This document shows, one piece after another, positions 7,952-28,320 of a stretch of 64,000 nucleotides of DNA. How positions within the stretch are numbered: the stretch's first letter is position 1; each line of letters starts with the position of its first letter. The position numbers and the translations under genes were made by a program. Origin of the DNA: Bryobacterales bacterium (lineage in GTDB: Bacteria > Acidobacteriota > Terriglobia > Bryobacterales > Bryobacteraceae). The notes beneath the pieces were generated by a model. The model was given only the letters and a program-made list of their open reading frames with translations, was not told where the DNA came from and searched no databases. The stretch spans positions 4,773 to 68,772 of the forward strand of contig PMTR01000152.1 in NCBI GenBank assembly GCA_003167255.1, given 5' to 3'.

Positions 7952-8350
7952 TTACCGGAGCGGAGCCAGGAGAACACTGATTGCCTCGAAAACTCGCGCG
8001 GCGGTCCCCAGCGCCACCGTCGCCTCGCTTTCGTCCGGTTCGCGCGGCGCGTCCAAATAGCGGAACACCACGGCGTAGTCGGTCAGATCGGAAGCCGCCT
8101 GGAATAGAGGAGCAAGGGACGGATTCAACGCAGCGCACTGGCCCCCTAGTTCGTTCAGGTCGTGCGTCTTGCGGAAGGGAACGTCGTGAAGGGCGAGGAA
8201 AGCCTTAGCGGCCTTCTCCGCCGCCTGCTGGCTGTGGAAGACTGAGCTGGATGGCTCCGCCGATGCCAGTAAGCGCGCCGCGTTGAGGTCCTTCCGGGCC
8301 TGCGCGAGCCACCGGGCAGCCTCATCACGCCGCGACTCTTCGGGTGTCAT
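7952..8350 (-). CDS. hepT: HEPN domain protein (toxin-like partner of MNT)
   Basis: Seen: 132 aa opening with ARWLAQARKDLNAARLLASA, then FHSQQAAEKAAKAFLALHDV and FRKTHDLNELG, which are the hallmarks of the PF05168 HEPN family. The tail DLTDYAVVFRYLDAPREPDE followed by a long helix also fits. Known: in HEPN-MNT modules the HEPN protein is a ribonuclease or ribonuclease-like toxin, and the MNT protein silences it by transferring AMP groups. Context: its start overlaps the end of the MNT gene by 26 bp on the same strand. Which residues form the active site was not certain; the RKTH stretch is shorter than the classical R-x4-6-H spacing. Confidence 0.85.
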   Translation of the reverse strand: MTPEESRRDEAARWLAQARKDLNAARLLASAEPSSSVFHSQQAAEKAAKAFLALHDVPFRKTHDLNELGGQCAALNPSLAPLFQAASDLTDYAVVFRYLDAPREPDESEATVALGTAARVFEAISVLLAPLR

Positions 8351-8657
8351 AAAGAACTTTTCCCTCGCGCGTGATGGTTGCCGGCAGGGATGCTTTCACA
8401 TGGGCGGCCCGCATATCGAAGTCGCTGGCCGGCCATCGGACCACATCCGCGGCCGTGCCCACACCCCATAGAGCGCGATGCACACCTGGCCGGTAGAGAT
8501 CCGCCGGGGCATCGTCCGGCAAGACCACGCAGAAGTCGAGATCGCTGTCTGCGCCGCCATCGCCGCGGGCGGCGGAACCGAACAGATAGATCCGCTCCGG
8601 GTGATAGTAATCCACCAGACGGCGCGTAATCTCCGCGATGGCTTGGTCCTGGGTCAT
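8325..8657 (-). CDS. mntA: MNT nucleotidyltransferase, antitoxin of HEPN-MNT pair
   Basis: Seen: 110 aa with the minimal nucleotidyltransferase signature GSAARGDGGADSDLDFCVV at about residues 27-45 (GSxxRG...SDxD). That leaves both catalytic aspartates intact. Known: MNT proteins neutralise their HEPN partners by AMP transfer and act as antitoxins. Context: first gene of the pair on the minus strand, overlapping the HEPN start by 26 bp, so translation is coupled. The start ATG at 8657 gives MTQDQAIAEITRRLVDYYHP, a typical helix before the beta-sheet. Regulation is not visible in the short upstream gap. Confidence 0.88.
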   Translation of the reverse strand: MTQDQAIAEITRRLVDYYHPERIYLFGSAARGDGGADSDLDFCVVLPDDAPADLYRPGVHRALWGVGTAADVVRWPASDFDMRAAHVKASLPATITREGKVLYDTRRVAA

Positions 8658-9356: not shown

Positions 9357-9818
9357 GTGACGGCGTATCTGGTCGATACCAATGTCCTGCTGCGGTTGGT
9401 CAAGCCCGATGACCGCGACTATCCGCTGGTAAGATCCGCTGTACAGCAGCTCTGGGCCGTCGGCGAAGACCTCTGCTACACGTCGCAGAATTTGGCGGAG
9501 TTCTGGAATACATGTACCCGGCCCGCGGAGCGGAATGGGTACGGCCTTTCCATTCCAGAGGCGGACCACCGTGCCCGGCGTGTGGAAGACCAGCTCACTT
9601 TTCTGGAAGACAGTAAGGCAGTGCATCTGGAGTGGCGAAAACTGCTGGTCGCTTATTCTGTATCGGGCGCACAAGTGCACGACGCGCGCTTGGTGGCTGC
9701 CATGCACGTTCACCAGGTCACGCACTTACTCACCTTCAACACGCGGGATTTTGTGCGGTATACCGGAATCGTCCCTGTGCATCCGCAAAGCGTCGAGCGC
9801 AGTCCGCAACAGCCCTGA
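9357..9818 (+). CDS. vapC: PIN domain ribonuclease, VapC-like toxin
   Basis: Seen: 153 aa with the four acidic positions expected of PIN nucleases: D7 in YLVDTNVLLRL, Glu in SQNLAEFWN, Asp in VHDARLVAAM and Asp in FNTRDFVRY. Known: VapC toxins are Mg-dependent ribonucleases that cut tRNA or rRNA and are held by a small antitoxin. The start is a GTG directly after the antitoxin stop. The C-terminal tail (VPVHPQSVERSPQQP) is typical for the family. The target cannot be inferred. Confidence 0.85.
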   Translation: MTAYLVDTNVLLRLVKPDDRDYPLVRSAVQQLWAVGEDLCYTSQNLAEFWNTCTRPAERNGYGLSIPEADHRARRVEDQLTFLEDSKAVHLEWRKLLVAYSVSGAQVHDARLVAAMHVHQVTHLLTFNTRDFVRYTGIVPVHPQSVERSPQQP

Positions 9819-10331: not shown

Positions 10332-10595
10332 ATGTACATTCTGACCGAATACCTTGACCGGGCGATGGCTCAGGCGGTGTATGACAAGCTCGATGACGGC
10401 ACGTACGGCGGGCGGATTCCACCGTGTCCCGGTGTGGTCGCATTTGCCGCATCCCTGGGTGAGTGTTCCGCGGATCTACGCTCCACCTTGGAAGATTGGG
10501 TGCTTCTAGGAATGAAACTGGCCCACGCGCTGCCCGTGATCGCCGGCATCGATCTCAACCGGGAGCCGGTTCATGAGCCGGTGGACACCCTGTAA
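10332..10595 (+). CDS. hicB: HicB-like antitoxin
   Basis: Seen: 87 aa from the ATG at 10332. The order beta-strand, YDKLDDGTYGGRIPPCPGVV, AFAASLGECSADLRSTLEDW matches the partial RNase H fold of HicB antitoxins (the G-x-IP-x-CPG motif followed by a helix). Known: HicB binds and blocks the HicA ribonuclease and often regulates its own operon. Context: overlaps the next gene, HicA-like, by 23 bp on the same strand. Order is antitoxin first, the reverse of E. coli hicAB but common elsewhere. No separate DNA-binding domain is visible in this short version. Confidence 0.82.
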   Translation: MYILTEYLDRAMAQAVYDKLDDGTYGGRIPPCPGVVAFAASLGECSADLRSTLEDWVLLGMKLAHALPVIAGIDLNREPVHEPVDTL

Positions 10596-10851
10596 GCGCC
10601 GCGACTTCATTCGCCGGCTGCGGGCGCTCGGTTTCGACGGTCCTCTGGCGGGAACCAGACACTCATTCATGATCTATGAGAGTCATAGACTCGCCATCCC
10701 ATCAAATACCGAATACTCGGTCGACAAGGTGAGAATGATGATCGCCGAAGTGGAAGCCTCCTTGGCCGCTCGCTTACCGCTGCCGAGTGGAGCTGCCTGT
10801 GAAGTCCGCGCCCAGTGGGACCGGCCTCCTGGCCGGTCGGAAAGGTGGTAA
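10573..10851 (+). CDS. hicA: HicA-like mRNA interferase with a repeat-derived C-terminal tail
   Basis: Seen: 92 aa. The part CKRRDFIRRLRALGFDGPLA followed by GTRHSFMIYES fits the double-stranded RNA-binding-like fold of HicA toxins, with the expected histidine in GTRHSF. The ATG at 10573 lies inside hicB. Oddity: the last ~12 residues (WDRPPGRSERW) are read from the dispersed repeat at 10815-10838, so the native stop may have been replaced. Known: HicA cleaves mRNA and is neutralised by HicB. Whether the altered tail affects activity cannot be told from sequence. Confidence 0.82.
   Translation: MSRWTPCKRRDFIRRLRALGFDGPLAGTRHSFMIYESHRLAIPSNTEYSVDKVRMMIAEVEASLAARLPLPSGAACEVRAQWDRPPGRSERW
10815..10838. 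repeat. GTGGGACCGGCCTCCTGGCC repeat inside the hicA 3' end
   Basis: A copy of the 24 bp palindromic family, with compensatory changes (GACCGGCC..GGCCGGTC) that keep the hairpin arms paired. It is read as part of the hicA ORF. Confidence 0.8.
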
Positions 10852-10972: not shown

Positions 10973-13045
10973 TCACTTCCGCAGGTCGTCCAAAAACTCC
11001 GATGCTGGATCGACGCCCGTCACCAGCAGATGGTCCCGTGCACGTGTGCAGGCAACGTAGAGCAACTGGCGTTCTGTGTTGTAAACCTCTTCGAGATCCG
11101 CGTCGTCCGCAACCGTTTCGATCCGCTCCTGCAGCGGAATCACCTCATCGTCACACGCCATTACGACGACGGTGCGGAACTCCAAGCCCTTGGCCAGATG
11201 CATGGTGCTGATCGAAGTTCGGCCAGTCGTGGTCTCAACGTTTTCGTCAAGCACCTTGTAGGGGAGCTTCGCACCCTCGACCGCCGCGCGGGCCCGCTCC
11301 AGTTCGGCGGCGGAGCGAACGAAGACGCCGATTTCGTGTGGGACGATACCGTCTTTGATCCGTTTCGCCAGCCAATCGCTGACGGCCTTGATCTCCTCCT
11401 GGCGACTATCCAGAACCATGATGTCCGGCTGCGGACCGTTGAAAGTGGAGATGGCGCCCCGGCGATCCTCCGTATTGCCGTCCACGTCGGAGACTTCGGG
11501 ACCCAGCAGCCGGTCGGCTTGCTTTCTGATCTGGTGCGATGTCCGGTAATTGATGCGTAGCGTAGACGAACGCCCTCGAACATCGACGCCGAGCGCTTTC
11601 CAGGAAAACGGCTGCTGAAAAATCCGCTGTCCCAGGTCGCCCGCAAAGAAAAGGCTGTTCGGACGCCCCGCTGCCAGGGCCGCCAGGAACCGCAACTGCT
11701 GGACACTGACATCCTGGGCTTCATCCACCACCACGAACTCAAATGGCGGGTGCGCGCTTTCTCGAAGTTTGGACGCCACGCGGCTGAACACCTCCGGGTA
11801 GGTCAACAGGCCCCTTGTGCGAAGGATGCTCCGCAAACACTCGAAGACCGACCATAGCACTATGCGCTGAGCTTCCTGCAATCTCGTCTTTCGCCCCAAC
11901 CGCATCACGTCACGGTAAGACTCCCAGGAGTCCAACTGCCAGGCGTCCACCACCTGCTCCCATTCCGTAAGCAAAAAATGCAGGGAGAACTTGTTCCCTT
12001 CCACCGCTCCGGCGGCTTCCTTCAACAGCTCTCGTATCGTTTCGCGCGAAGCGATCTGCGGATGGCCAAAGTTCACCTCATACAGCCGCCGGCCGATGGC
12101 GTTCACGGAGTGCACCTCCAGCCGTTCCCCAAGCCGAGGCTGGTTGCTGATGAGTCCCCGGAGCTTGGTACTCAGGGCATTCGACAAGGCGTCGGAAAAG
12201 GTAGTGAGCAACACCCTGGCATCGGGGTTCGCCCGAGTGAGGAAGACCGCGCGATGCAGCGCGACAATGGTCTTCCCCGTGCCCGCCGAACCCGCAACCC
12301 GCGCCGGCCCGCTGTAGTCGCGCTCAACCAGCGCGCGCTGCGCCGGATGAAGGAAAATCGTCCACTTGTCCCATGGGTAGTCGAGCGCGCGCTCCAGTTC
12401 TTCTACGTTCGCCATTACTCGGAAGCGGCGTTGGGCGTCGGGATGCGCGAACGGATCGGCTCCAAGGGCTACCGGCTTGGCGACCTTTGGCGCGACGCCG
12501 GTGGCCAGATCCAGCAACGCCTCGGCAGCCTCGCTGGGCAGGTGATCCGCCAGTTCCAGCAACGTGTCTTCATTGGCGCGGCGCACATCGGCCATCCATT
12601 CGGTCGGTATGCCATACCCCAGCAATTCGTCTTCCGACATGCCGGCGAACAACGCTGGCTTCGGGGGCGCAGGCTGCGCCACCTCAACGTACTTGGGAAT
12701 CGTGATCTCCTGCACCGTCTCCCGAACTTCCACGAACTGCGCGGCGCCGGTCTTGGGATGGGTTTCGAGTTTCCGCCGCTCCCCCCACTGGTAAGCGTTG
12801 TCGTGGTGACCGGCATAGCAAAGCAGAAGGCTGGACTCGGTCCGATGAACGATCAGCCGGACATCGCTGCTCACTCGGACCGACCAGAAACGGCGATCCT
12901 TGGCTTTGTCGAGCTTGTGGAATTGCAGCGCCGGATGAGCCGGGTTCAACTGGAGATCGAAGGCCGCGGTCTTGACCGCCTTCTGCTCGTCGCCGGTGAG
13001 TTTGGCGAGACTGTCGGTGAACGTGTCGGCAATCCGGAATTCCAT
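10973..13045 (-). CDS. UvrD/PcrA-type superfamily I helicase with N-terminal RelE-like domain (GajB-like partner)
   Basis: Seen: 690 aa. Residues 1-95 (MEFRIADTFTDSLAKL, then FHKLDKAKDRRFWSVRVSSD and VRLIVHRTESSLLLCYAGHHD) follow the RelE/ParE toxin fold pattern. A linker leads to a complete SF1 helicase core: Walker A GSAGTGKT near 252-259, DEAQD at 441-445, RINYRTSHQIR, STMHLAKGLEF and LLYVACTRARD. Known: in Gabija, GajB is a UvrD-like helicase without a toxin domain that works with GajA. Context: it starts 3 bp after the OLD/TOPRIM nuclease gene, the Gabija gene order. Inferred: the RelE-like part may bind RNA, cleave it or mediate assembly; toxin activity is not shown. Confidence 0.85.
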   Translation of the reverse strand: MEFRIADTFTDSLAKLTGDEQKAVKTAAFDLQLNPAHPALQFHKLDKAKDRRFWSVRVSSDVRLIVHRTESSLLLCYAGHHDNAYQWGERRKLETHPKTGAAQFVEVRETVQEITIPKYVEVAQPAPPKPALFAGMSEDELLGYGIPTEWMADVRRANEDTLLELADHLPSEAAEALLDLATGVAPKVAKPVALGADPFAHPDAQRRFRVMANVEELERALDYPWDKWTIFLHPAQRALVERDYSGPARVAGSAGTGKTIVALHRAVFLTRANPDARVLLTTFSDALSNALSTKLRGLISNQPRLGERLEVHSVNAIGRRLYEVNFGHPQIASRETIRELLKEAAGAVEGNKFSLHFLLTEWEQVVDAWQLDSWESYRDVMRLGRKTRLQEAQRIVLWSVFECLRSILRTRGLLTYPEVFSRVASKLRESAHPPFEFVVVDEAQDVSVQQLRFLAALAAGRPNSLFFAGDLGQRIFQQPFSWKALGVDVRGRSSTLRINYRTSHQIRKQADRLLGPEVSDVDGNTEDRRGAISTFNGPQPDIMVLDSRQEEIKAVSDWLAKRIKDGIVPHEIGVFVRSAAELERARAAVEGAKLPYKVLDENVETTTGRTSISTMHLAKGLEFRTVVVMACDDEVIPLQERIETVADDADLEEVYNTERQLLYVACTRARDHLLVTGVDPASEFLDDLRK

Positions 13046-13048
13046 CTT

Positions 13049-14788
13049 CTACGCCGGGTGAGTTCCAGTCAACGAGACAAGCTTGCCAATGAATCGATGG
13101 ACATCGTCGTGAATTTCGTCGGCGGCCATACTGACTGCTATCTGCTCCCGAATGAGTTGCACCGGGGGCGTGCCGGTCCGCAGTTGCTGAAAAAGCGAGT
13201 TGTCGTCCTCGAACAAAATGCGCTTGCCGTCCACCGCGCTAAACACGTTCGCCGTCACATTCCGCCACGTTTTTCCGGGTGTCAGAGTCAGATTCTGCCC
13301 CACAAAGAAGTCGTCGATTGCCTGCAAGACTGGCTGCACAAACAGTTCGCCCTCGCCGAATCGCAAGGCGGCCCGCTTCCAGGCATCCGGCACCAGCAAG
13401 TAGTTCTCGATGTTCTTGCGCTTCCACTCGACCAACGTGGGGTTATTCGGCGCCGGATGGAAGGTGGCCCTATCGTCATAGTCGAAGAGCATCAACCTGG
13501 AGACCTCCGGGATGATTTGTTTGAGAGCCGCGAAGTGCTCGTCCGCCCTGGTCTTCATGCTCTGCTTGTCGCCGCCGCCCATCGATTTGAAACACACCTT
13601 GTCCATTGCGGTCTGAGCGCCGCATGGAGCCGCCCAAGCACGCAGGATGCGCTCGTCGCTCTCCCCCTCCACGTACAGGATATAGGGTGAGCCCATCAGT
13701 CGTGCGATTTCTTCATTGGAGACTTCCGCCATCGCCCGCAGCACCTCGGGCGCCGACTGCACCCGCCTCGGCGCTTGATCCAACAGGGACACGATCTGGC
13801 CGGCATTCACGCCGCGCACAAACTCCTCCGCGTGCGTGGCGATCAGGAACTGCGTGTTCGTTTCAACGGCTTTTCGCTTAAAGTAATCGAGAATCTCGCG
13901 TTGCAGGTTGACATGCAGGTGGGCATCGGGCTCGTCGAGCAGGATGGTCGTCGGCTGGTACCCGTACAGAAAAGCCAGCAAGGTCAGCGTCTGGTGGAAA
14001 CCGCTCCCCCCGGCGATGATGTCGAAATCCTTCTCGTTCTGACGGTACTCGACAGAGATGTAGACATCCTTGGCCGAGTCGTATCCCGGCTCATGTATTT
14101 CGACGGAGAACCAACGCTTGACGATGTCCGCCAGTTCTTTCCAGTCCGGAGGCGTAGGAGGGCCCTTGGCGGCGCGCCCTGTTCCGCGAGAGTGCGGTGG
14201 ACACACCCGCAAAAGCAGATTGCGCAGCACGCTGCCAGGCTGTCCCTTTCCGACTTGCTGGCGGATGGGGGCTTCATCCAGCCACTTCTCCGTAGGCTCC
14301 AGGCCGGAAAATGGCGGCACATAGGCAATTCTTGGCAAATCCCCGCGTTCCTCACAATCGTGGAATTTCTTCCATCCACCCCTCGGAATGGCGTAAATAG
14401 TCTGAGAGGAGTGATAGCGCAATTCCACGCCAAACGAGGCTGTTTCGCCTGTCGCCTGCCTCCATTCCACGTCGATGCCGATCAGGATGTACTCCTGCTT
14501 CTTCTTGCCGTCGACCAGGGGCCAATAGCGATCTGTCCGGTCCTTCCACAGCAGGTTGAACTCCGGTACTGGCAACGCCGTGAAGTTTGGCAGTACTACC
14601 TGAATGCCCGTGGAGCCGCTGCGCTTCGATCGATGAAACTCGTCCACGCAAAACTGCCAGATCGCCAGAGCCTGGAGAACCGTGCTCTTGCCGCTATTGT
14701 TGCGCCCAACCAGCAGATCGAATTGGGTGAACTCGTAGGTCTGCTCGCTCACGCTCTTGAAATTGCGCAGGGTCAATCGAGTGATCAT
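13049..14788 (-). CDS. OLD-family ATP-dependent nuclease (AAA ATPase plus TOPRIM), GajA-like
   Basis: Seen: 579 aa. The ABC-type ATPase half shows Walker A GRNNSGKS (28-35), signature GGSGFHQTL, Walker B TILLDEPDAHLH and the H-loop ATHAEEF. The TOPRIM half shows the catalytic Glu at 374 in LYVEGESDER and the DxD at 436-438 in LFDYDD, then RKNIENYLLVP. Known: OLD-family nucleases combine these parts, and class 2 OLD genes sit beside UvrD-like helicases, as in the Gabija defence system (GajA about 578 aa). Context: first of two genes, with the helicase 3 bp downstream. A 435 bp gap filled with repeats separates it from the mod gene. Inferred role: anti-phage DNA nuclease complex. Confidence 0.87.
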   Translation of the reverse strand: MITRLTLRNFKSVSEQTYEFTQFDLLVGRNNSGKSTVLQALAIWQFCVDEFHRSKRSGSTGIQVVLPNFTALPVPEFNLLWKDRTDRYWPLVDGKKKQEYILIGIDVEWRQATGETASFGVELRYHSSQTIYAIPRGGWKKFHDCEERGDLPRIAYVPPFSGLEPTEKWLDEAPIRQQVGKGQPGSVLRNLLLRVCPPHSRGTGRAAKGPPTPPDWKELADIVKRWFSVEIHEPGYDSAKDVYISVEYRQNEKDFDIIAGGSGFHQTLTLLAFLYGYQPTTILLDEPDAHLHVNLQREILDYFKRKAVETNTQFLIATHAEEFVRGVNAGQIVSLLDQAPRRVQSAPEVLRAMAEVSNEEIARLMGSPYILYVEGESDERILRAWAAPCGAQTAMDKVCFKSMGGGDKQSMKTRADEHFAALKQIIPEVSRLMLFDYDDRATFHPAPNNPTLVEWKRKNIENYLLVPDAWKRAALRFGEGELFVQPVLQAIDDFFVGQNLTLTPGKTWRNVTANVFSAVDGKRILFEDDNSLFQQLRTGTPPVQLIREQIAVSMAADEIHDDVHRFIGKLVSLTGTHPA

Positions 14789-18040: not shown

Positions 18041-21000
18041 TTACACCACCGTCTGCGCGGCCACTGAGTCAATCATTCGGTTGAATTCGGCTTCGACTTT
18101 AGCTTTGAAGTCTGCCTCGATCATGTAAGCCTCCGTGAACTCGGCGAACGCCCAGCGGCCATACCGCCCGTGGTTGTTCACGCCTGGTATCCAATACGTC
18201 TCCATGGTGGACTTCTTCTCCTTGGCGTCTTCCTTCCGGAAACCCTTGATCTCCACGATCAGATGGAGCAGGTCACCGTCCCCCCGCCCATCATCCACCA
18301 GCACGATGAAGTCGGGAAGGTACATGCGGGCCTGGGAGCCGTAGCGATAAGGCACTTCCAGACCGAGGTTGTGGTTCTTGACGTAGGCCTTCACCCGTGG
18401 ATGGGATTCGGCCACGCGGCAAAACTCCGCTTCCCAGTCGCTATCCAGAATGATCCAGTTGATGTGGCACCGGCGCGCGTCGGTCTGCCAGCGGCTGGTT
18501 CTCGACGTGTTGAACTTCACGTAGTTGGTGGAACCAGTGGGGTTGTAGGGGTCGAGTACAGCCTTGATGGGGCTCGTGCCCACCAATTTGCGGGTGATGG
18601 CGGCGGTAATTCGCTCGCACGCCATGTCCGCCAGTTCCTGGTACATGAGCTGGGCGGGATAGGTGCCACCCTTGCAGACTAGGCAGGTGTCGAGCCACTG
18701 CTTGGTGATCCGCTTGAGCTGTCCGAATAGGTGGAGCTTGGGATCTTCGCCCGTGTCGCGCCACTTGGTATAGATCAGGCGCTTTACCAAGTGAAACAGC
18801 AGCGTGGAGAGCCGCATATCGCCCAGGTGCTCCAGGGTGAGCTCAACACCTTCCCCAATGATGCCTTCGTTCTTGGTGATGGAAGGCCCCACCAGATCGG
18901 GGGTCAGGTCCAGCACCGAATCGGCATTGAAATCCGCGGTGAGCCGTTCCTCCGGCAACTCCACCCGGTACCCGGAAACCCGGGGGAAGCGGATTTCCAG
19001 GGCATCGCGTTCGGGACGCATGGCCTTCACCTGGATGGTCTCTCGGGGCGGTTGCGGTGGGGCGATGACCGGCTTCGCCGTGAAATCGAACGGAATTCCC
19101 AGCACGTCCGCATACTCCACATTGAACAGGCCTTCCTCATTGAGATCGTAGGACTGGCGCCGCAGCGCACGGCCAATTACCTGCTCGCAGAGAAGTTGCG
19201 TGCCGAAGGCTCGCACACCTAATACATGCGTGACGGTGTTGGCGTCCCAGCCTTCGGTGAGCATGGAGACCGACACCACACACCTTATCGATTCGCCAAG
19301 ACGGCCTTCTTTTCCTACCGTGTTCATGACTTCCCGGAGCAACTCCTGGTCGGTAAGGCCCTCGGCCTGTTGGCGGTCTCCGGTACGCTCGATAATCTCG
19401 CGGCGAAAGCGGTCGATCTCGTCGGTTGCCATGTCGCGGAAATTCTCATCCAGCGCTTCGCCGGATTCCAGTTGCTCGCTATCGATCAGCAGCGTATTGG
19501 GCCTGGCGAGTTGGTTGCCATGCTCATCGAAATTTCGAAACAGTGCCAGGCGTCCGTTTTCCAGCGTGGTAGAGCCGTCGTCGTTCTTCCGGTGGAACCC
19601 GGAGACGAAATCATAAACCAGCTTGGATGCGGACGTATTGTTGCAGACCACGATGAAGCAGGGAGGGACTCGAACGCCGGCGGCGCTCCACAGTTGGTAG
19701 GTCTTGTCATAGTGACCGTAGAGGGCTTCCAGCGCGGTTTGCAGCTCAACCGGGAGGCTGAGCGGATCGAGGGTGGCTGCCTTGCCGCGGCCCTTCTTGG
19801 GCATCCGCGCGCGAATGTGCTCCCAGAGGTTTCGGAACTTCGGCACGTCCCCGCCGGGGATGTTGTCCGCCACCGGCACGCGCGGCAGCTTCACGATGCC
19901 GCATTCAATGGCGTCCATCAGCGAAAAGTCGCTCATGGTCCAGGGAAACAGAGTGCCCTCGGCATAGTTCGAGCCCCGGAGAAAGAACGGCGTTGCGGAG
20001 AGATCGATGACTCGTGTGATGCCGAGCTTGCGCTTGACGATTTCCAAACCGGAGATCCAGAGCCGTGCAGCCTCGTTGTTCTTCTCGGCCTCTTGCTTCT
20101 CATCCCCTTTTAGGCCGGTCTCGCCCCCTGCGCCGGGCCTTTCGCGGTAGCAGTGATGAGCCTCATCGTTGATCACGAGGATGTTCTTCAGGCCCATGAG
20201 GTCCGGCATCACCCGCTGGACCATCTGCCCTTCGGTTTCCAGAGTATTCAACTCATCGCCACGGCCCTGGAGCAGTGAGCGCCCACCCTTCGAGAGTTCC
20301 ATACGCTCACGAAGTTTGAAGGCATGGTAGTTCGTGATGACGATTTTGGCGCGGTCGAGATCGCCCAGCATGTCGCCGGGCACCAGTTCGCGGCTCTGGT
20401 AGTAGCTATCCGGGTCGTTGGGTTGCAACACACGAAGGCGGTCGCGAATGGTTAGGCCAGGCGAGACCACCAGAAAGCCGCGCGTGAATTTGGTGCTACC
20501 GGGCCGGCGCACGGCGTTGATGGTTTGCCAGGCAATGATCATGGCCATCACGGTGGTCTTGCCCGCGCCGGTGGCCAGTTTCAGGGCGAGTCGCAGGAGC
20601 TCCGGGTTGGCGTCGTTGTTGGCGTTGGCGAGGTGTTCCATGAACGCTTTGCCAGGGCCGGCTTTCGGGGCAACCTCGGTGAGCCAGATGGCGGTCTCAA
20701 CGGCCTCGATCTGACAGAAGAACGGCCGGATGCCGCTGAACTTGTGATGTCGCCAGTGCTGGAGGAGACGTGCGGTTTCAGGCGTGACGTGCCAATCGTT
20801 CGGATCCTGCCGTTTCCGCCACAGCTCCACATGATGCCGCAATTCGTTAATGATGGACGTTTGATCGTACTGTTGCTCTTGGGTGGAGAGGCCTTTGCCC
20901 TCGTCAAAAATCAGATCTTGTTGATTCGCCTTTCCCTTGCGCTTCCGGGGTTTCGGGATGGGCGTGATGAACTCCGCGCGGCGCCGGTTTTCGATAATCT

Positions 21001-21097
21001 GTTGTGTTGGCTGGCCCTGCTCATCGAGCTCCCAGTTCCGTTTCGGTTCGTCATAGGGAGAGTTGAGAATCGGCCGTTCGAAGAATTGATTATCCAT
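18041..21097 (-). CDS. Type III-like restriction endonuclease Res subunit (DEAD-box helicase plus PD-(D/E)xK nuclease)
   Basis: Seen: 1018 aa. SF2 helicase motifs are Walker A TGAGKTT (Lys180), DEAH at 311-314, VIDLSATPFF, VSMLTEGWDANTVTHV and QVIGRALRR. Near the C-terminus YLPDF (Asp929) and VEIKG (Glu949, Lys951) form the PD...ExK nuclease. The layout fits the BPTD_3080-type type III restriction proteins. Known: Res cuts DNA after ATP-driven translocation or sliding when Mod finds unmethylated sites. Context: res precedes mod with a 9 bp gap, so the pair is probably one operon. The catalytic residues all appear intact, so the system is likely active. Confidence 0.88.
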   Translation of the reverse strand: MDNQFFERPILNSPYDEPKRNWELDEQGQPTQQIIENRRRAEFITPIPKPRKRKGKANQQDLIFDEGKGLSTQEQQYDQTSIINELRHHVELWRKRQDPNDWHVTPETARLLQHWRHHKFSGIRPFFCQIEAVETAIWLTEVAPKAGPGKAFMEHLANANNDANPELLRLALKLATGAGKTTVMAMIIAWQTINAVRRPGSTKFTRGFLVVSPGLTIRDRLRVLQPNDPDSYYQSRELVPGDMLGDLDRAKIVITNYHAFKLRERMELSKGGRSLLQGRGDELNTLETEGQMVQRVMPDLMGLKNILVINDEAHHCYRERPGAGGETGLKGDEKQEAEKNNEAARLWISGLEIVKRKLGITRVIDLSATPFFLRGSNYAEGTLFPWTMSDFSLMDAIECGIVKLPRVPVADNIPGGDVPKFRNLWEHIRARMPKKGRGKAATLDPLSLPVELQTALEALYGHYDKTYQLWSAAGVRVPPCFIVVCNNTSASKLVYDFVSGFHRKNDDGSTTLENGRLALFRNFDEHGNQLARPNTLLIDSEQLESGEALDENFRDMATDEIDRFRREIIERTGDRQQAEGLTDQELLREVMNTVGKEGRLGESIRCVVSVSMLTEGWDANTVTHVLGVRAFGTQLLCEQVIGRALRRQSYDLNEEGLFNVEYADVLGIPFDFTAKPVIAPPQPPRETIQVKAMRPERDALEIRFPRVSGYRVELPEERLTADFNADSVLDLTPDLVGPSITKNEGIIGEGVELTLEHLGDMRLSTLLFHLVKRLIYTKWRDTGEDPKLHLFGQLKRITKQWLDTCLVCKGGTYPAQLMYQELADMACERITAAITRKLVGTSPIKAVLDPYNPTGSTNYVKFNTSRTSRWQTDARRCHINWIILDSDWEAEFCRVAESHPRVKAYVKNHNLGLEVPYRYGSQARMYLPDFIVLVDDGRGDGDLLHLIVEIKGFRKEDAKEKKSTMETYWIPGVNNHGRYGRWAFAEFTEAYMIEADFKAKVEAEFNRMIDSVAAQTVV

Positions 21098-21250
21098 GTC
21101 CTAACTGTTCTCGCCCGCCACCTTCCTGGACCGAGCTTGTTCTACCAACCGTCTCAACATAACACTGCGCGGCGCCCATCGCTCACCACTGGGTGCCGTA
21201 AGCGCAAGCGAGCTGAACCGTCGGAGTCTTCTTCATATTGCCCTCGGCTT
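21098..21250. other. Gap between divergent res gene and DUF cassette
   Basis: About 150 bp that should hold the res promoter (minus strand) and that of the cassette (plus strand). No clear -35/-10 pair was fixed by eye, and no gene is seen here. Confidence 0.4.
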
Positions 21251-21415
21251 GCCGACGACTCCCGCACGGGCCGTTGGATTCACCAGTCGCGGTTACGGTT
21301 CGAAGATGGGAGAATGTATCTGTTGCGAGTCGTTGTGGCCGAAGATGAACAGCCGCCTGTGATTATCACGGCTTACCGGACCAGCAAAATAGAGAAGTAC
21401 TGGAGCGCCGAATGA
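21251..21415 (+). pseudogene. C-terminal part of a DUF4258-like protein
   Basis: In the frame ending at the TGA 21413-21415, residues ADDSRTGRWIHQSRLRFEDG and RMYLLRVVVAEDEQPPVIIT with AYRTSKIEKYW match the second half of DUF4258, which ends with TSKIxxYW. The usual N-terminal half (about 35-40 residues with a start) is not readable in any frame. The first ATG in frame is 21314, giving only 33 aa. Its stop overlaps the start of the DUF2283 gene (ATGA). Known: DUF4258 and DUF2283 genes often lie together as a toxin-antitoxin-like pair. Confidence 0.65.
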
Positions 21416-21627
21416 AAGTAGTATACGACCCCGAAGTGGACGTCCTCAGCGTCCTGCTGAGCGATGCGCCGGTTGCGGAAAGCGATCAGGATAAGCCCGG
21501 CGTCATCCTGGACTACGACGCCGGCGGCAACGTGGTGAGTTTCGAGATTCTCGATGCTTCGAAGCGCATGGCGAATCCCATGTCCGTCGAGTACGCCGTT
21601 ACGCCGCCACTTCGCCGGCCGGCATGA
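21412..21627 (+). CDS. DUF2283 family protein, putative antitoxin-like partner
   Basis: Seen: 71 aa. MKVVYDPEVDVLSVLLSDAP, then a VAESDQDKPGVILDYDAGGN turn and VVSFEILDASKR match DUF2283 (YD.e.D.LyI.l......S......vild.d..G.vvGiEilnaS). Context: overlaps the DUF4258 remnant by 4 bp (ATGA) and the next gene by 4 bp (ATGA), so three reading frames are translationally chained. Known: DUF2283 usually accompanies DUF4258; a toxin-antitoxin role has been proposed from genome context. The biochemical function is unknown. The C-terminal PPLRRPA tail is short and basic. Confidence 0.82.
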   Translation: MKVVYDPEVDVLSVLLSDAPVAESDQDKPGVILDYDAGGNVVSFEILDASKRMANPMSVEYAVTPPLRRPA

Positions 21628-22388
21628 TGGTGCTGGATGCGCTGATTCGCGAGTTCAACGGCCACGTGGCGTTCCGGGAACGCCGGCCGGGCGTGCTCCA
21701 GGTCCTGGCCCCGTTGTTTCACGAAGACGGCGACATGGTGGACATCTTCCTCGATGAACCCTTGAACGGTTCCGGCAAGGTCCGGATCGGCGACCATGGA
21801 CTGACGCTGATGCGTCTCACGTACACCTACGACCTGGACACCGAGAACAAGCAGCGCATCTTCAATCGCATCTTGTCGGAAAACCGGATTCAGGAACAGG
21901 ACGGGCGGCTGTATATCGAGGCCGAACCTGAACGGCTGTACCCGGCGCTGCTTCAATTCGCGCAGACGGTCGCCAAGGTCTCCAGCATGCAGTACTACAA
22001 GCGGGAGGTGATCCAGAACCTTTTCTACGAGCAGTTGGCCGAGTTCGTCGAGGAGAAGCTGGCCGAGTACAACCCGCGCCGGAACACATTGCCGATTCCG
22101 GACCACGACGAGTACGAGGTGGATTACCAGTTCGACATCGGCCCCCGCCCGCTCTTCCTGTTCGGAGTGAAAGACAACGATAAGGCGCGGCTGGCCACCA
22201 TTTCATGCCTGGAGTTTCAGCGGCGGCGCATCGCGTTCAAGGGCGTGATGGTGCACCAGGATTTCGAGAGCGGGATCACCAAGAAGGATCGTACCCGGAT
22301 CACCAGCGCCAGCGACAAGCAGTTTCCGTCGCTCGACGACTTCCGGGAGAACGGCCCGCAGTTCTTGGAACGTGAGCGCGCGGCCTGA
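21624..22388 (+). CDS. DUF1828 domain protein
   Basis: Seen: 254 aa. Residues about 10-125 (VLQVLAPLFHEDGDMVDIFL, then RIGDHGLTLMRLTYTYDLDT) follow the DUF1828 pattern, in which a DGD-type turn is followed by a TDxG-like strand. The second half (PLFLFGVKDNDKARLATISC, then FKGVMVHQDFESGITKKDRTR) resembles DUF1829. Context: starts 4 bp inside the DUF2283 gene (ATGA), with no gap, and ends 1.2 kb before the next gene. Known: these domains have no established activity. Inferred: third member of the cassette; its chaining to a DUF4258/DUF2283 pair suggests a joint role, perhaps defence-related given the neighbouring res gene. Confidence 0.7.
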   Translation: MMVLDALIREFNGHVAFRERRPGVLQVLAPLFHEDGDMVDIFLDEPLNGSGKVRIGDHGLTLMRLTYTYDLDTENKQRIFNRILSENRIQEQDGRLYIEAEPERLYPALLQFAQTVAKVSSMQYYKREVIQNLFYEQLAEFVEEKLAEYNPRRNTLPIPDHDEYEVDYQFDIGPRPLFLFGVKDNDKARLATISCLEFQRRRIAFKGVMVHQDFESGITKKDRTRITSASDKQFPSLDDFRENGPQFLERERAA

Positions 22389-22522
22389 GTTGCCACTCAA
22401 CGATTCGCTTCGCAGCGATAGGTGTCCAAGGAACGGGCGATAGTCTGGAATTTTCCTCGCCTCGCCCATCGGCCGAAGCAGAAATTGGACACATGAAAGA
22501 TTCGTTTGCCCCAGCCACCCAC

Positions 22523-22889
22523 ATTTCAACTTCTTTCCCCCTCAGAATCAATTACTTGCCAGGAATCTCTTGCCCCAGGCGTCTGCTACCCTGAAGCCGG
22601 GTAGGAGCTTTCGCGAACGCGGCGCTTTTGAGGCGCTCCACGGACTATTGTTTTTCATGCCGCCTGCCCTCAAAACCGCCCAAGCTTCGGCGATCCAAGC
22701 GAGTCCTTTATGCAATCGGATCTTCCAACCAACACCCTCGACCTCCGCCGCTCCGCCACTCGCTCGCTGGCCGCTCCTCTTTTGGCGAAACGAAGCCAAT
22801 TTCAGCCCCGCCCGGCCCCCTTGAGCCGCGCCACCCCGTTATACCAAACGAACCCAATCCCAAAAACGGACAGTGGCGAGCCTCCCGGG
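22523..22889. repeat. Long direct repeat, copy 1 (about 367 bp)
   Basis: From ATTTCAACTTCTTT to GACAGTGGCGAGCCTCCCGG this segment matches 23041-23410 at most positions with a few small indels, in the same orientation. Several ORFs cross it on both strands but none has a family match. The end of the repeat carries CGTTATACCAAACGAACC and CAAAAACGGACAGTGGCGA. It could be a dispersed non-coding repeat or the relic of an insertion. Confidence 0.8.
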
Positions 22890-23040
22890 GCTGCTGTCGG
22901 GGTGGCTGTTCGCAGTCACCGGGATCGGATACAATTGATCCGGCTGGAGGGACTTAAGCGCATACATGCGACACCTCATCTTGTATAGCGTCCCAGCCCT
23001 GACGGACATGGCCACCACCAATAGCGAACGAGCCGGGCAA
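22890..23040. other. Spacer between the two long repeats
   Basis: 151 bp separate the copies. ORFs here are short and on both strands. No gene or RNA was recognised. Confidence 0.5.
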
Positions 23041-23410
23041 ATTTCAACTTCTTTTTCCCTCAGAATCAATTATTTACCAGGAATCTCTTGTCCCATGCGT
23101 CTGCTACTCTGAAGCCGGGTAGCAGCTTTCGCGAGCGCGGGACCCTTGAGGCGCTCGACGGACTATTGTTCTTCATGCCGCCTGCCCTCAAAACCGCCGG
23201 ACCTTCGGCGATCCAAATGAGTCCTTTATGCAATCGGATCTTCCAACCAACACCCTCGACCTCGGCCGCTGGATCGGACAACGCCCGCTGGCCGCTCCTC
23301 TTTTTGCGAAACGAAGCCAATTTCAGCCCCACCCGGCCTCCTGGAGCCCGCGCCACCCCGTTATACCAAACGAACCTAGTCCCAAAAACGGACAGTGGCG
23401 AGGCTTCCGG
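23041..23410. repeat. Long direct repeat, copy 2 (about 370 bp)
   Basis: Second copy of the repeat at 22523-22889. The strongest divergence is near the middle (GGTAGCAGC..CGGGACCC versus GGTAGGAGC..CGGCGCTT) and near TCGGCCGCTGGATCGGACAA. The sequence between 23411 and 23620 has no gene but holds GAACGAACCCAATT and CGAACCCAATTTTG near 23578-23615, which resemble the CGAACCCAATCC stretch of copy 1. Confidence 0.8.
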
Positions 23411-23620: not shown

Positions 23621-25903
23621 CTACTTCACCCGCCACTCGATGATGCCGAACTCGCGCCAGTCCGTGTCGCGCGTCAGGAAGTTCGCGCCGGGCGGGCCAA
23701 TCTCACCGGTCTTGTAATGCACCGTCCGCGGCTCCACTTCGAGGCGCACCGCCGTGGCCGTCACGGGAACGAAGGCCGCGGTGTTGAACCGGTCCTTATC
23801 GACGGTATAGGAGGCCGGTATGGGTTTCCAATCGCCGCCGTCCCGATACAAGACCCGCCAGGTAGCCGGCAGCTTGCAGAATCGCCGGTCGTCGGCGAAA
23901 TAAACGGACGCGGAGGAGATCCTGGTGGGCGCTTTGAAATCGTACTCCACCCACGCCGGTTGGCCGGTGGGCGGACGCATGCGGAAGTAGCGGTGCGATT
24001 CGTCGGCGGAGCTGATCGGGTCGGCGCCATCGTAAACCGCGGCGATGTCGTCGTTCTGATCGTTGTAGCCGGTCCACTTCTTCTCGATGCCGCCGGAAGA
24101 TTCCACCTTGGCGATGGCGGGCGGCGGCATCACCGGCAGCGTCACGGCCTTCTCCGAGCGTCGCGCAAGCCAGACTGCCATTTCGCCCATGCCGCGATTG
24201 GCCCAGGCGTAGTAGGGAATGGCGACCAGATTCTGGCCGGCGATCACAGTGACACCGTTCAACAGATCCGGACGGAACTCGCTCCGCAGCGCCGCATCAT
24301 CCGCGACCACGCGGTTGAGCGCGTGTCCGCCGTTGTCGGGCCACTCGGCGCAATAGACCAGCGGGCCGCGTTCCAACGCCACCAGGCCGGCGTCGTCTTT
24401 CACGCGCGCATCAGCCAACACGCGGCGCACTGGCATGGGCATCGAAAGGTCGATGGAGTCGCCGGGCATCCACTCGCGGCTGATCCTGGCGTACCCATTG
24501 GCCATCGAGGCATTGATGGCGCGGCCGTTAATCTTGAGGACCACCGGCGCGCGGTTGGTGTCGAGGAAGCGGTAGAGATCGCCCGACATCACCTGGCTGC
24601 CGGTCCATCCGGGAATACGCACGTAGATGGCGAAGCGGCGCGGCGCATCCGGATCGACGTGGATCTTCACGCCGCCGTCCCACGGATAGCGCGTCTCCTG
24701 GCGCACGCGGACCCGGCTCCCGCCCATGGCGATGCGCGCGGTCGATCCCACAAAGAGATTGACGTACAGCTCATCGTCGTTGCGCGCGTAGACATAGCCG
24801 CCCAGCGACGCCATCAGGCGAACGACATTCGGCGGGCAGCAGGGCGTATCGATCCAGTCAAAGCGCTCGTAGTTGCCGTAGGACATCAGCGGATTCTGGT
24901 AGAAGAAGCGGTCACCTTTGAGCGAAACCCCGTCGAGGAACCCGTTGTAGAGCACGCGCTCCATCAGGTCGGCGTACCGCGCGTCGCGGTGCAGCAGGAA
25001 CATGCGTTGGTTCCACACCACGTTGCCGTAGGAGGCGCAGGTTTCGTTCCAGGCGCTGAGATTTGGCAGCTCGTAAGGCTGCCCGTACTGCTCGTGGAAG
25101 CGCACAGAACCGATCGCCCCGGTGAGATAGGTCTTGCGCGAGGCGTCCTGCCAGATGCTGTCGATGGCGCGATTGTAATCGCCGCCGCCGGTGAGCGCGG
25201 CGATATCGGTGAAGGGAATGTAGAGATAGGTGGCGCGCACGCAGTGGCCCTCGGCCGCCATCTGCTGAGCGATCGGCTTATCGTCCTGCGCGTACGTGCG
25301 GTCGAGCGCGTATTCGCCGGTGCGCGGGTAATCGTCCTTGCCACGCTCGTCAAGGAAGAACTGCGCGAGGCGCGCGTAACGGGCGTCGCCGGTCTCGCCG
25401 TACATGTCGAGCAGCCCGATCTTCATGCCCTCGTGGCTGGAAATGTAGGTCTTCTTTCCGGGGCCGTAGGCGGCATCGAGCGCGTCGATGGCTTTGATGG
25501 CCTCATCCAACATCTTGCGTTCGCCGGTCGAGCGATACCAGGCGACGGCGGCTTCGTAGAAGTAGCCCGAGATGCGGGTGGGATTCTGCAAGCGCGTTTC
25601 GGTGGCGGCCACTTCGCGATCCACCAGTTTCGAGACGTACTGCCGCAATTCCGCATCGGCCTGCTTGGCGAGCATGTAGGCAGCGGCCTGAATGAGCCGC
25701 GGGTTATCGTAACTGCGGTCGCCGAATTTCTGGAACAGGTGCTGGATCGAGACCGTCCGATTCACCTGCATCTTGGGCGCCCAGAATTGGTCGGTGATAT
25801 CGACGTCCGCCAATGGCACCGGCTCGAGCGTGTAGATGGGTTTCGAAATTTGCGCCGCGCACAGCGCCGCGATAAGAACTACAAAGGCGATCCAGGGCTT
25901 CAT
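23621..25903 (-). CDS. Secreted GH127-like beta-L-arabinofuranosidase, second paralogue
   Basis: Seen: 760 aa from the ATG at 25903, which overlaps the stop of the upstream paralogue as ATGA; a signal peptide (WIAFVVLIAALCAAQ) follows. The zinc/active-site residues of GH127 are all present: ETC motif E287 and C289 in WNETCASYGN, and C355-C356 in DTPCCPPNVVR. A beta-sandwich C-terminal region follows. Known: GH127 enzymes use a zinc-bound cysteine nucleophile to release L-arabinofuranose. The last ~190 residues (IGSSADESHRYFRMRPP region, WVEYDFKAPTRISSASVYFA) look like a carbohydrate-binding discoidin-type module. Context: tandem with a second GH127. Confidence 0.85.
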   Translation of the reverse strand: MKPWIAFVVLIAALCAAQISKPIYTLEPVPLADVDITDQFWAPKMQVNRTVSIQHLFQKFGDRSYDNPRLIQAAAYMLAKQADAELRQYVSKLVDREVAATETRLQNPTRISGYFYEAAVAWYRSTGERKMLDEAIKAIDALDAAYGPGKKTYISSHEGMKIGLLDMYGETGDARYARLAQFFLDERGKDDYPRTGEYALDRTYAQDDKPIAQQMAAEGHCVRATYLYIPFTDIAALTGGGDYNRAIDSIWQDASRKTYLTGAIGSVRFHEQYGQPYELPNLSAWNETCASYGNVVWNQRMFLLHRDARYADLMERVLYNGFLDGVSLKGDRFFYQNPLMSYGNYERFDWIDTPCCPPNVVRLMASLGGYVYARNDDELYVNLFVGSTARIAMGGSRVRVRQETRYPWDGGVKIHVDPDAPRRFAIYVRIPGWTGSQVMSGDLYRFLDTNRAPVVLKINGRAINASMANGYARISREWMPGDSIDLSMPMPVRRVLADARVKDDAGLVALERGPLVYCAEWPDNGGHALNRVVADDAALRSEFRPDLLNGVTVIAGQNLVAIPYYAWANRGMGEMAVWLARRSEKAVTLPVMPPPAIAKVESSGGIEKKWTGYNDQNDDIAAVYDGADPISSADESHRYFRMRPPTGQPAWVEYDFKAPTRISSASVYFADDRRFCKLPATWRVLYRDGGDWKPIPASYTVDKDRFNTAAFVPVTATAVRLEVEPRTVHYKTGEIGPPGANFLTRDTDWREFGIIEWRVK

Positions 25904-28320
25904 GGGTTTACGCGCCATTCGATCACCCCGCCTTCGTACCAGGTGATTTCCTGTTGCAGATAGTTGGCGTCGGGCGGACCGAGGTCGCCCTTCTTGTAAG
26001 TGCGGGGCTGCAATTGGATTTCGATGCGCAGCGCGGAAGTGGTCACGGCATCGAAGGAAAGCCGGTTGAACTTGTCGCGTTCCACGCCGTAGGCCGCAGT
26101 GGTATGGACCGGCTTCCACTCGTTCCCGTCCTTATATAACAGGCGCCACCCTTTCGGCGTCACGCAGTATTGCTTGTCGTCTTTCCAATAGACTTCGACG
26201 GAAGAAACGCGCGCGGCCTTGGCGAGGTCGTACTGAATCCAGGCGCTGTCGCCGCTCTGCGGATGCAGACGGAGATACGGCGCGTTGCCGTCTTCGGAGT
26301 TAATGGGTTCGAAGCCGTCCTGGATGGCCGAAATCTCGCCCGAGCCATCCTGCGAATTGGGGTACCAGCGCTGCTCCGGCGTGGGCGGTTTGTGGCCGGG
26401 ATAATTTTCGGCAACCGTGCCGTTGCCCACCGATGAAGTGGCCTTGGCGGTGGAAGCCAGAGAGGTGCGCGGCGCGACGCGGGCCTTCGATTCATCGCGC
26501 GCCAGCCAGATCGACATCTCGGACGCGCCGCGGTTGCCGAAAGCGTAATACGGGATCGCCACCATCGGCTGCGCCTGGCGGTTCAGCGAAACTCCGTCGG
26601 CACCGCGGCTGAGCGAGACGGCGCTGCCGGTCAAAGCGCCGACACCGTCGAGCAGATCCTTCTGATAGGCGAATTGCAGCTTGGCGGCGGGCGGCGCCAC
26701 CAGGTTGAAAATGCCGGCTGGGTTGTCGGCGCGCTCCACGCAATAGACCAGGGGACCGCGCTCAAAGGCCACCAGGCCGCGGTCGTCGGCCACTTCGTCG
26801 CGCGCCACCACCTGCTGGATCTCCATCGGCAAGTTGAACTCGACCACGTCACCGGTATTCCATTCGCGCTCGATGCGCGCGTAGCCGCGGTCGGTTGTGT
26901 AGGTGACGGGCCGGCTGTTGATGGTGATGGCGACCGCCGGTGGCGACGGCGCCAGGTACTTGTAGAGCAGCAGCGGCATGGGCTGGTTGCGCACCCATCC
27001 CGGAATGCGGATGAAGAGCGGGAAGCGCCAGGAGTACTGCGGGCTCACGGTGAGCTTCACCGCGCCGTTCCACGGGTAATCGGTTTCCTGCGCCAGGTCC
27101 ACTTTCACGTTGCGAATTTTGGTCTGCGCCTTGCTGGCGACGAAGAGGTTGACGTAGAGGCCCGGGTCTCCCTGCGCATAGATGAGGCTGCCCAATTGCG
27201 GCAGCAGGCGCGCGAGGTTGGGCGGGCAGCAATCGGGGCCGAAGGCTGCCTGCCTGGTGAAGCTGCCGGACGCCATCAGGGGCGCCTGGTAGAGATACTT
27301 GTCGCCGGCCAGCGAGACACCCGCCAGAAATCCGTTGTAGAGGGTGCGCTCCATCATGTCGGCGTAGCGCGAATCCTGCGTGAGCAGGAAGAGCCGGTGG
27401 TTCCACAAGGTGTTGCCGTAGGCGGCGCAGATTTCATTCCAGCAGGTGAGGTTCGGCAGATCGTAATCGTCGCCGTAATTCTCTTCGTGGCGATACGTGC
27501 CGACGCCGCCGGTCAGGTAGGTACGCTTGGAGACGGCGTCTTCCCAGATGCGCTGGGTAGCCTTGATGTAATCGGAATCGTTGGTGAGCGCGGCGATATC
27601 GGTGAGCGGCGTGTACAGGTAGGTGGCGCGCACGGCGTGGCCGATGGCGCGGGCCTGCTGCTTCACGGGCTCGGCATCCTGCGCGTAGGCTCCGTAAAGT
27701 TTGGTGCGGCCGGCGGAATTGCCGCGCGAATCCAGGAAGAATTTGGCGAGCATCAGATACTTGGCCTTGCCGGTCGCGCGGTACAGCCGCACCAGGCCAA
27801 GCTTTAGCCCCTCGTGGTTGGAGATGTCGTGGCGCTTGTCGGGTCCGAAAACGGCATCCAGATCGTCGGCGATCTCTATGGCCACGTCGAGCAGTTTGCG
27901 GCTGCCGGTGGCTTCGAAATAGGCCACTGAAGTTTCGAGGAAGTTGCCGGCGTTCAGCGTGGAGCCGTCGCCATTGGTGGACCAGACGTGTTTCTGCGTG
28001 CGAATCCGCTGGATGATGGCGTCGAGCTTGCCATCGATGCGCGCGCGCAAGGCCGGGTCGGGGTGCTGCGCGAGCGAGTAGCATGCCGCCTCGATGAGCC
28101 GCAGGTCGGGATTGCGGCCCATCCGGTCGAAGCGATCGAGCAGGCCCGGAATCGAAACCGTGCGATTGTTATCGAGCCGCGGCGTCCAGAAAGTGTCGGT
28201 GATCTGGACGTTGCCGAAGGGGATTCGGGCGACCGGGTAATCGTTCTTGCGCGAGGCCGGCTGGGAGAAAGCGAGCAGGGCGCACCCGGCCACGGCGATA
28301 GCGATCCAGCGATTCCGCAT
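25900..28320 (-). CDS. Secreted GH127-like beta-L-arabinofuranosidase, first paralogue
   Basis: Seen: 806 aa with a signal peptide (WIAIAVAGCALLAFSQP). Active-site motifs: E296 and C298 in WNEICAAYGN, and C364-C365 in GPDCCPPNLAR, which match the ExC and CC zinc ligands and nucleophile of GH127. The (alpha/alpha)6-like region is followed by a beta-sandwich and a discoidin-like tail (SAWIQYDLAKAARVSSVEVY). Known: such enzymes act on arabinose-containing plant polysaccharides or glycoproteins. Context: first of two overlapping paralogues (ATGA), transcribed away from the M24 peptidase gene. The two proteins are clearly related but differ enough that they may have different substrates. Confidence 0.85.
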   Translation of the reverse strand: MRNRWIAIAVAGCALLAFSQPASRKNDYPVARIPFGNVQITDTFWTPRLDNNRTVSIPGLLDRFDRMGRNPDLRLIEAACYSLAQHPDPALRARIDGKLDAIIQRIRTQKHVWSTNGDGSTLNAGNFLETSVAYFEATGSRKLLDVAIEIADDLDAVFGPDKRHDISNHEGLKLGLVRLYRATGKAKYLMLAKFFLDSRGNSAGRTKLYGAYAQDAEPVKQQARAIGHAVRATYLYTPLTDIAALTNDSDYIKATQRIWEDAVSKRTYLTGGVGTYRHEENYGDDYDLPNLTCWNEICAAYGNTLWNHRLFLLTQDSRYADMMERTLYNGFLAGVSLAGDKYLYQAPLMASGSFTRQAAFGPDCCPPNLARLLPQLGSLIYAQGDPGLYVNLFVASKAQTKIRNVKVDLAQETDYPWNGAVKLTVSPQYSWRFPLFIRIPGWVRNQPMPLLLYKYLAPSPPAVAITINSRPVTYTTDRGYARIEREWNTGDVVEFNLPMEIQQVVARDEVADDRGLVAFERGPLVYCVERADNPAGIFNLVAPPAAKLQFAYQKDLLDGVGALTGSAVSLSRGADGVSLNRQAQPMVAIPYYAFGNRGASEMSIWLARDESKARVAPRTSLASTAKATSSVGNGTVAENYPGHKPPTPEQRWYPNSQDGSGEISAIQDGFEPINSEDGNAPYLRLHPQSGDSAWIQYDLAKAARVSSVEVYWKDDKQYCVTPKGWRLLYKDGNEWKPVHTTAAYGVERDKFNRLSFDAVTTSALRIEIQLQPRTYKKGDLGPPDANYLQQEITWYEGGVIEWRVNP

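What the first reader, a model, noticed from the sequence alone, without database searches (positions are those of the whole stretch)
21251..22388. Translationally chained DUF4258 remnant, DUF2283 and DUF1828 genes
Both junctions are 4 bp ATGA overlaps. The DUF4258 part lacks its N-terminal half, yet its end and its overlap with DUF2283 are intact. The third gene with a DUF1828 domain is an unusual addition to a DUF4258/DUF2283 pair, and the cassette diverges from a res gene.
Basis: partly seen in the sequence, partly recalled or inferred. Interest (0 to 1): 0.6.

Follow-up and report, generated by a model that had tools for sequence, protein, structure and literature searches.

The report
Chimeric relic of two toxin-antitoxin-like modules
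This stretch is a patchwork of the surviving second halves of two different two-gene, toxin-antitoxin-like modules that normally sit at the tail of bacterial restriction (anti-virus) operons; the putative toxin of each is lost or broken while the partner is kept, so it is a modest but informative relic, not a new three-gene system.

Summary
A DUF4258 remnant (21245-21415), DUF2283 (21412-21627) and DUF1828 (21624-22388) are joined by two ATGA overlaps and diverge from a BPTD_3080-family res gene. DUF4258 lacks its first 32 of 88 residues in every frame.

Elsewhere, the usual partner of this DUF1828 protein is not DUF2283. It is a DUF6978-type gene just upstream, often with the same ATGA overlap, in many phyla, IMG/VR contigs and a temperate Pseudomonas phage beside cI. 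The window genome has no intact DUF6978. Among 30 DUF1828 places found in 396 genomes of the phylum, DUF2283 lies within 5 kb only at the two in this genome.

DUF4258-DUF2283 and DUF6978-DUF1828 both occur 2-8 bp behind the last gene of restriction operons (res or hsdS). The window joins the tail of the first to the tail of the second. The junction recurs: complete in one other MAG, as remnants in 3-4 more genomes. The same genome holds a permuted copy.

In nine loci DUF4258 is broken while DUF2283 is intact; the reverse was never seen. DUF1828 shows dN/dS 0.06 between the two complete copies, the DUF4258 remnant 0.63. Best reading: an RM-tail chimera keeping two antitoxin-like genes. Toxin/antitoxin roles are inferred, not shown.

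The parts
21245..21415 (+). DUF4258 remnant (residues 33-88 of 88 plus stop); N-terminal 32 residues absent; first in-frame ATG inside it at 21314
21412..21627 (+). DUF2283 gene, 71 aa, complete, ATGA overlap with the remnant
   Evidence: PF10049 9.4e-18; dN/dS 0.23 against L014
21624..22388 (+). DUF1828 gene, 254 aa, complete, ATGA overlap with DUF2283; usual upstream partner DUF6978 absent
   Evidence: PF08861 1.8e-16; PADLOC PDC-M24B 1.2e-14; dN/dS 0.06 against L014; no intact DUF6978 in genome
21245..22381 (+). 1137 bp block shared without gaps with L014 (92% identity), sharp ends, unrelated flanks
21620..21652 (+). DUF2283/DUF1828 fusion region; homology to the permuted C49 copy stops at 21628 (DUF2283 side) and resumes at 21652 (DUF1828 side)
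18041..21097 (-). res gene, BPTD_3080-family restriction endonuclease, divergent neighbour
   Evidence: NF046055 1392 bits
15224..18031 (-). mod gene, type III DNA methyltransferase
   Evidence: PADLOC MTase_III 1367 bits; PF01555

Best explanation
The cassette is a chimera of two separate two-gene modules, DUF4258-DUF2283 and DUF6978-DUF1828. Each is natively translationally coupled and each is found directly behind the last gene of restriction-modification operons. Recombination joined the end of DUF2283 to the start of DUF1828, probably through the ATGA/CATGAT sequence both gene borders carry, which kept the overlap. The first gene of each module (probable toxin or effector: the RelE/ParE-type DUF4258, and DUF6978) was broken or lost; the second gene of each (probable antitoxin or neutraliser: DUF2283 and DUF1828) was kept and is still under purifying selection. 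It most likely acts today, if at all, as an antitoxin-only relic beside a type III restriction system. Shown: the chimera, the native partners, the losses, the selection. Inferred: toxin/antitoxin roles, the recombination route, present activity.
For: DUF6978-type gene directly upstream of this DUF1828 in Acidobacteriota, Cyanobacteria, Verrucomicrobia, Cloacimonadota, Betaproteobacteria and others, in IMG/VR contigs and in Pseudomonas phage 5399 beside cI with a 4 bp overlap; 9 of 13 aligned upstream proteins match PF22398. Intact DUF4258-DUF2283 without DUF1828 in many family genomes. RM-tail position: res-DUF6978-DUF1828 2 bp apart (L190), res-DUF4258-DUF2283 8 bp (L126), hsdS-DUF6978 2 bp (L016, L020), hsdS-DUF4258 4 bp (L132). 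Phylum-wide, no DUF1828 near DUF2283 outside the window genome. Loss pattern: 14 intact pairs, 9 with broken DUF4258 and intact DUF2283, 0 the other way, also when searched from DUF4258. DUF6978 intact implies DUF1828 intact. dN/dS: DUF1828 0.06, DUF2283 0.23, DUF4258 remnant 0.63. DUF4258 is listed as a RelE/ParE-superfamily type II toxin family (PMC11980606).
Against: No experiment; DUF6978 and DUF1828 models have no convincing relative among solved structures, so toxin and antitoxin roles rest on loss patterns, gene context and the DUF4258 literature. Loci in the tally are related, not independent. DUF4258 in the literature is usually antitoxin-first (A/T), whereas here it is the first gene. 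Low dN/dS could in part reflect selection before the DUF6978 partner was lost.
Confidence: 0.72

Rival explanations
1. A genuine three-gene DUF4258-DUF2283-DUF1828 system of this bacterial family, in which DUF1828 is a working third component; the window copy has merely lost its toxin.
For: The junction recurs in L014 and, as remnants, in L126, L125, L128 and probably L132; DUF1828 is under strong purifying selection in this context.
Against: No intact triple in 237 family genomes; where DUF4258 is intact DUF1828 is absent or decayed; DUF1828's general partner is DUF6978.
Confidence: 0.13
2. Plain debris: neither DUF2283 nor DUF1828 does anything now; the low dN/dS reflects selection before the fusion or recent transfer.
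For: Several related copies are broken (L126, L125, L128, L136, L020, L030); flanks are non-coding and repetitive on the right side.
Against: 41 synonymous against 10 non-synonymous changes in DUF1828 between two copies that already share the fusion, with no stop or frameshift in either.
Confidence: 0.1
3. Assembly or sequencing artefact that cut DUF4258 or fused unrelated genes.
For: Window lies in a draft genome of 200 contigs.
Against: The same fusion and nearly the same DUF4258 break are found in an independent MAG with other flanks; no N-terminal DUF4258 sequence is present in any frame nearby.
Confidence: 0.02

Closest known systems
DUF4258 type II toxin family (PF14076, RelE/ParE BECR superfamily) with a DUF2283 partner
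   Same: Gene order DUF4258-DUF2283 and ATGA overlap; complete in relatives such as L125, L126, L131
   Different: Window copy lacks residues 1-32 and scores below the Pfam cut-off; DUF2283 is followed by DUF1828
DUF6978-DUF1828 two-gene module (undescribed as a pair in the papers found here; PADLOC candidate PDC-M24 covers the DUF1828 component)
   Same: DUF1828 protein is 78-96% identical to DUF6978-linked members of the module from the same family and keeps the ATGA start
   Different: DUF6978 is missing; DUF2283 stands in its place
HipAD / DS-6 (HipA-like kinase plus DUF3037-DUF1829 protein, PMC13092281)
   Same: A two-gene defence system validated against phage whose second protein carries DUF1829, a domain that I recall Pfam describing as commonly C-terminal to DUF1828 (from memory, not tested)
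   Different: No DUF1829 or DUF3037 match in the window protein and no HipA-like gene beside it
Orphan or anti-addiction antitoxins (solitary antitoxins that neutralise incoming toxin-antitoxin elements; from general knowledge)
   Same: Second genes kept, first genes lost, in two modules at once
   Different: Neutralisation not tested; no cognate toxin known

Membership tests
DUF4258 toxin family (PF14076) | Match over the model above the curated cut-off | tested here: not met
   17.4 bits against 25, model positions 52-71 only
DUF2283 (PF10049) | Match above cut-off over the whole model | tested here: met
   64.6 bits, 1-49/49
DUF1828 (PF08861) | Match above cut-off over the whole model | tested here: met
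   60.6 bits, 2-91/91
DUF6978-DUF1828 module | Intact DUF6978 gene directly upstream | tested here: not met
   Upstream gene is DUF2283; only a C-terminal DUF6978 fragment elsewhere in the genome
PADLOC PDC-M24 | Component B (DUF1828-type) | tested here: met
   PDC-M24B 1.2e-14, residues 14-172
PADLOC PDC-M24 | A second component beside component B | tested here: not met
   No other PDC-M24 component hit in the DUF2283 or DUF4258 proteins, nor in three DUF6978 proteins of related loci
HipAD / DS-6 | DUF1829 domain and HipA-like kinase neighbour | tested here: not met
   No DUF1829 hit at E<=1; neighbours are res/mod
Toxin-antitoxin module | Toxicity of the first gene and rescue by the second | not testable with these tools
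   Only indirect loss asymmetry
Type III restriction-modification neighbour | mod and res genes | tested here: met
   NF046055 1392 bits; MTase_III 1367 bits

The most novel reading that the evidence does not exclude
The DUF2283-DUF1828 pair is a selected antitoxin-only cassette: two coupled, orphan antitoxins kept to neutralise incoming DUF4258 and DUF6978 toxins carried by rival RM operons, prophages or phages, with restriction operon tails acting as exchange slots for such modules.
Probability: 0.15. Interest if true: 0.6.

Novelty: new variant of a known kind. Interest (0 to 1): 0.38.

Why it matters
It separates two modules that the raw sequence made look like one, identifies DUF6978 as the conserved partner of this DUF1828 family across phyla and phages, and shows that two-gene toxin-antitoxin-like modules sit, and appear to be exchanged, directly behind restriction operons. 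It makes the pair DUF6978-DUF1828 a concrete, testable candidate toxin-antitoxin or phage-defence system.

Tried and rejected
Frameshift or missed start upstream of 21245: no DUF4258 N-terminus in any frame. General DUF1828-DUF2283 operon: rejected by co-location across 396 genomes. An intact DUF6978 elsewhere in the genome: none. Fold comparison of the AlphaFold models of DUF1828 (pLDDT 87.6) and DUF6978 (pLDDT 84.3) with the PDB: no hit at E<=0.001; sequence search of PDB also empty or chance. DUF1829 in the C-terminal half: no Pfam hit. Plasmids: no relative of DUF1828. Papers on DUF1828, DUF6978 or PDC-M24 as a system: none found; none of the eight papers that hold DUF2283 or DUF4258 contains the term DUF2283. 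Exact history of the permuted copy: trees of the short genes are poorly resolved inside the fused group.

Full report
What is there. DUF1828 (254 aa) and DUF2283 (71 aa) are complete by Pfam; the DUF4258 part matches only the last 20 positions of its model. Against an intact relative of 88 aa from another genome of the family, the window keeps residues 33-88 and has nothing for 1-32 in any frame. The divergent neighbour is a BPTD_3080-family res gene with a type III mod. The wider stretch 7.9-22.4 kb also holds HEPN/nucleotidyltransferase, PIN, UvrD-like helicase and AAA genes, a defence-rich neighbourhood.

Native partner of DUF1828. A scan of bacterial and archaeal genomes for relatives of the window DUF1828 protein gave 23 loci. 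Where the upstream side can be read, the gene before it is nearly always a 160-190 aa protein, often with the ATGA overlap; 9 of 13 such proteins match DUF6978, best 4e-8. The pair also occurs in IMG/VR contigs and in Pseudomonas phage 5399, one small gene behind the cI repressor, where both Pfam models pass their cut-offs. In 396 genomes of the phylum, 30 DUF1828 places and many DUF2283 places were found; my comparison of the two lists puts them within 5 kb of each other only in the window genome itself.

Native partner of DUF2283. In the family, DUF4258-DUF2283 pairs with an ATGA (rarely other) overlap are common without DUF1828. Fourteen pairs are intact. Nine loci have DUF4258 truncated, frameshifted, deleted or stopped with DUF2283 intact: the window, its permuted copy in C49, L014, L127, L128, L132, L134, L118 and L083. 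None has intact DUF4258 with broken DUF2283, also when the search starts from DUF4258. One locus (L136) has both damaged. For the other module, all loci with intact DUF6978 have intact DUF1828, while DUF1828 survives broken or missing DUF6978 in five (window, C49, L014, L015, L017; Fisher p about 0.04, on related loci).

The fusion. L014, from an independent MAG, carries the same 1137 bp without gaps at 92% identity between unrelated flanks. L126 has an intact DUF4258-DUF2283 followed by about 50 decaying codons of DUF1828; L125 and L128, and less clearly L132, have shorter starts of it. A second place in the window genome, contig C49, holds the same pieces permuted: a C-terminal DUF6978 fragment, DUF1828 (96% DNA identity), a 26-codon DUF4258 end and DUF2283 (93%). 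The alignments stop at 21628 on the DUF2283 side and start at 21652 on the DUF1828 side. DUF2283 often ends in CATGA and DUF1828 starts with ATGA, so joining at that shared sequence would keep the overlap without selection for it; this route is an inference. A tree separates the fused group from plain pairs (97% ultrafast bootstrap, with L132 on the plain-pair side) but does not resolve its inside.

Why these two modules meet. Both lie directly behind the last gene of restriction operons: res then DUF6978-DUF1828 2 bp apart (L190), res then DUF4258-DUF2283 8 bp apart (L126), hsdS then DUF6978 (L016, L020), hsdS then DUF4258 (L132). The C49 copy has a res C-terminus like that of L190 upstream, with a HEPN/nucleotidyltransferase pair in between. 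A shared slot makes exchange between them likely.

Selection and mechanism. Between window and L014, DUF1828 shows 41 synonymous and 10 non-synonymous differences (dN/dS 0.06), DUF2283 0.23, the DUF4258 remnant 0.63 against 0.12-0.38 for intact DUF4258 compared with each other. DUF4258 is listed among RelE/ParE-superfamily toxin families of unknown activity (PMC11980606). With the loss asymmetry this points to first gene = toxin or effector, second gene = antitoxin or neutraliser, in both modules, and to the window cassette as two kept antitoxin-like genes. A DUF1829-containing partner protein in the phage-defence system DS-6/HipAD is a related precedent (PMC13092281). None of this has been shown by experiment, and structure models found no known relative.

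Noticed in passing
window 10973-13045 (-) and 13049-14788 (-): A 690 aa UvrD-like helicase whose N-terminus reads like a RelE-type toxin (by eye), next to an AAA/OLD-type ATPase, directly beside the type III mod/res genes; possibly one defence operon.
   Followed up: partly
window 7952-8657 (-): HEPN and nucleotidyltransferase pair; the nucleotidyltransferase DNA is about 72% identical to the one in contig C49 beside the permuted cassette.
   Followed up: partly
window 9357-9818 (+) and 10573-10851 (+): A PIN-domain gene (VapC-like) and a small protein that resembles HicA by eye but has no Pfam match.
   Followed up: no
window 22500-22870 and 23040-23400: Two copies of a non-coding repeat to the right of the cassette.
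   Followed up: no
window 23621-26119 (-) and 25900-28320 (-): Two tandem, similar large genes of about 800 aa that resemble glycoside hydrolase family 127 proteins by eye.
   Followed up: no
L190 1-3765: IMG/VR contig with res, DUF6978 and a DUF1828 95% identical to the window's, in one tight row; the complete form of the module.
   Followed up: yes
L199 2251-4699: Pseudomonas phage 5399: cI repressor, a small gene, DUF6978 and DUF1828 in a row, a typical place for prophage-encoded defence genes.
   Followed up: partly
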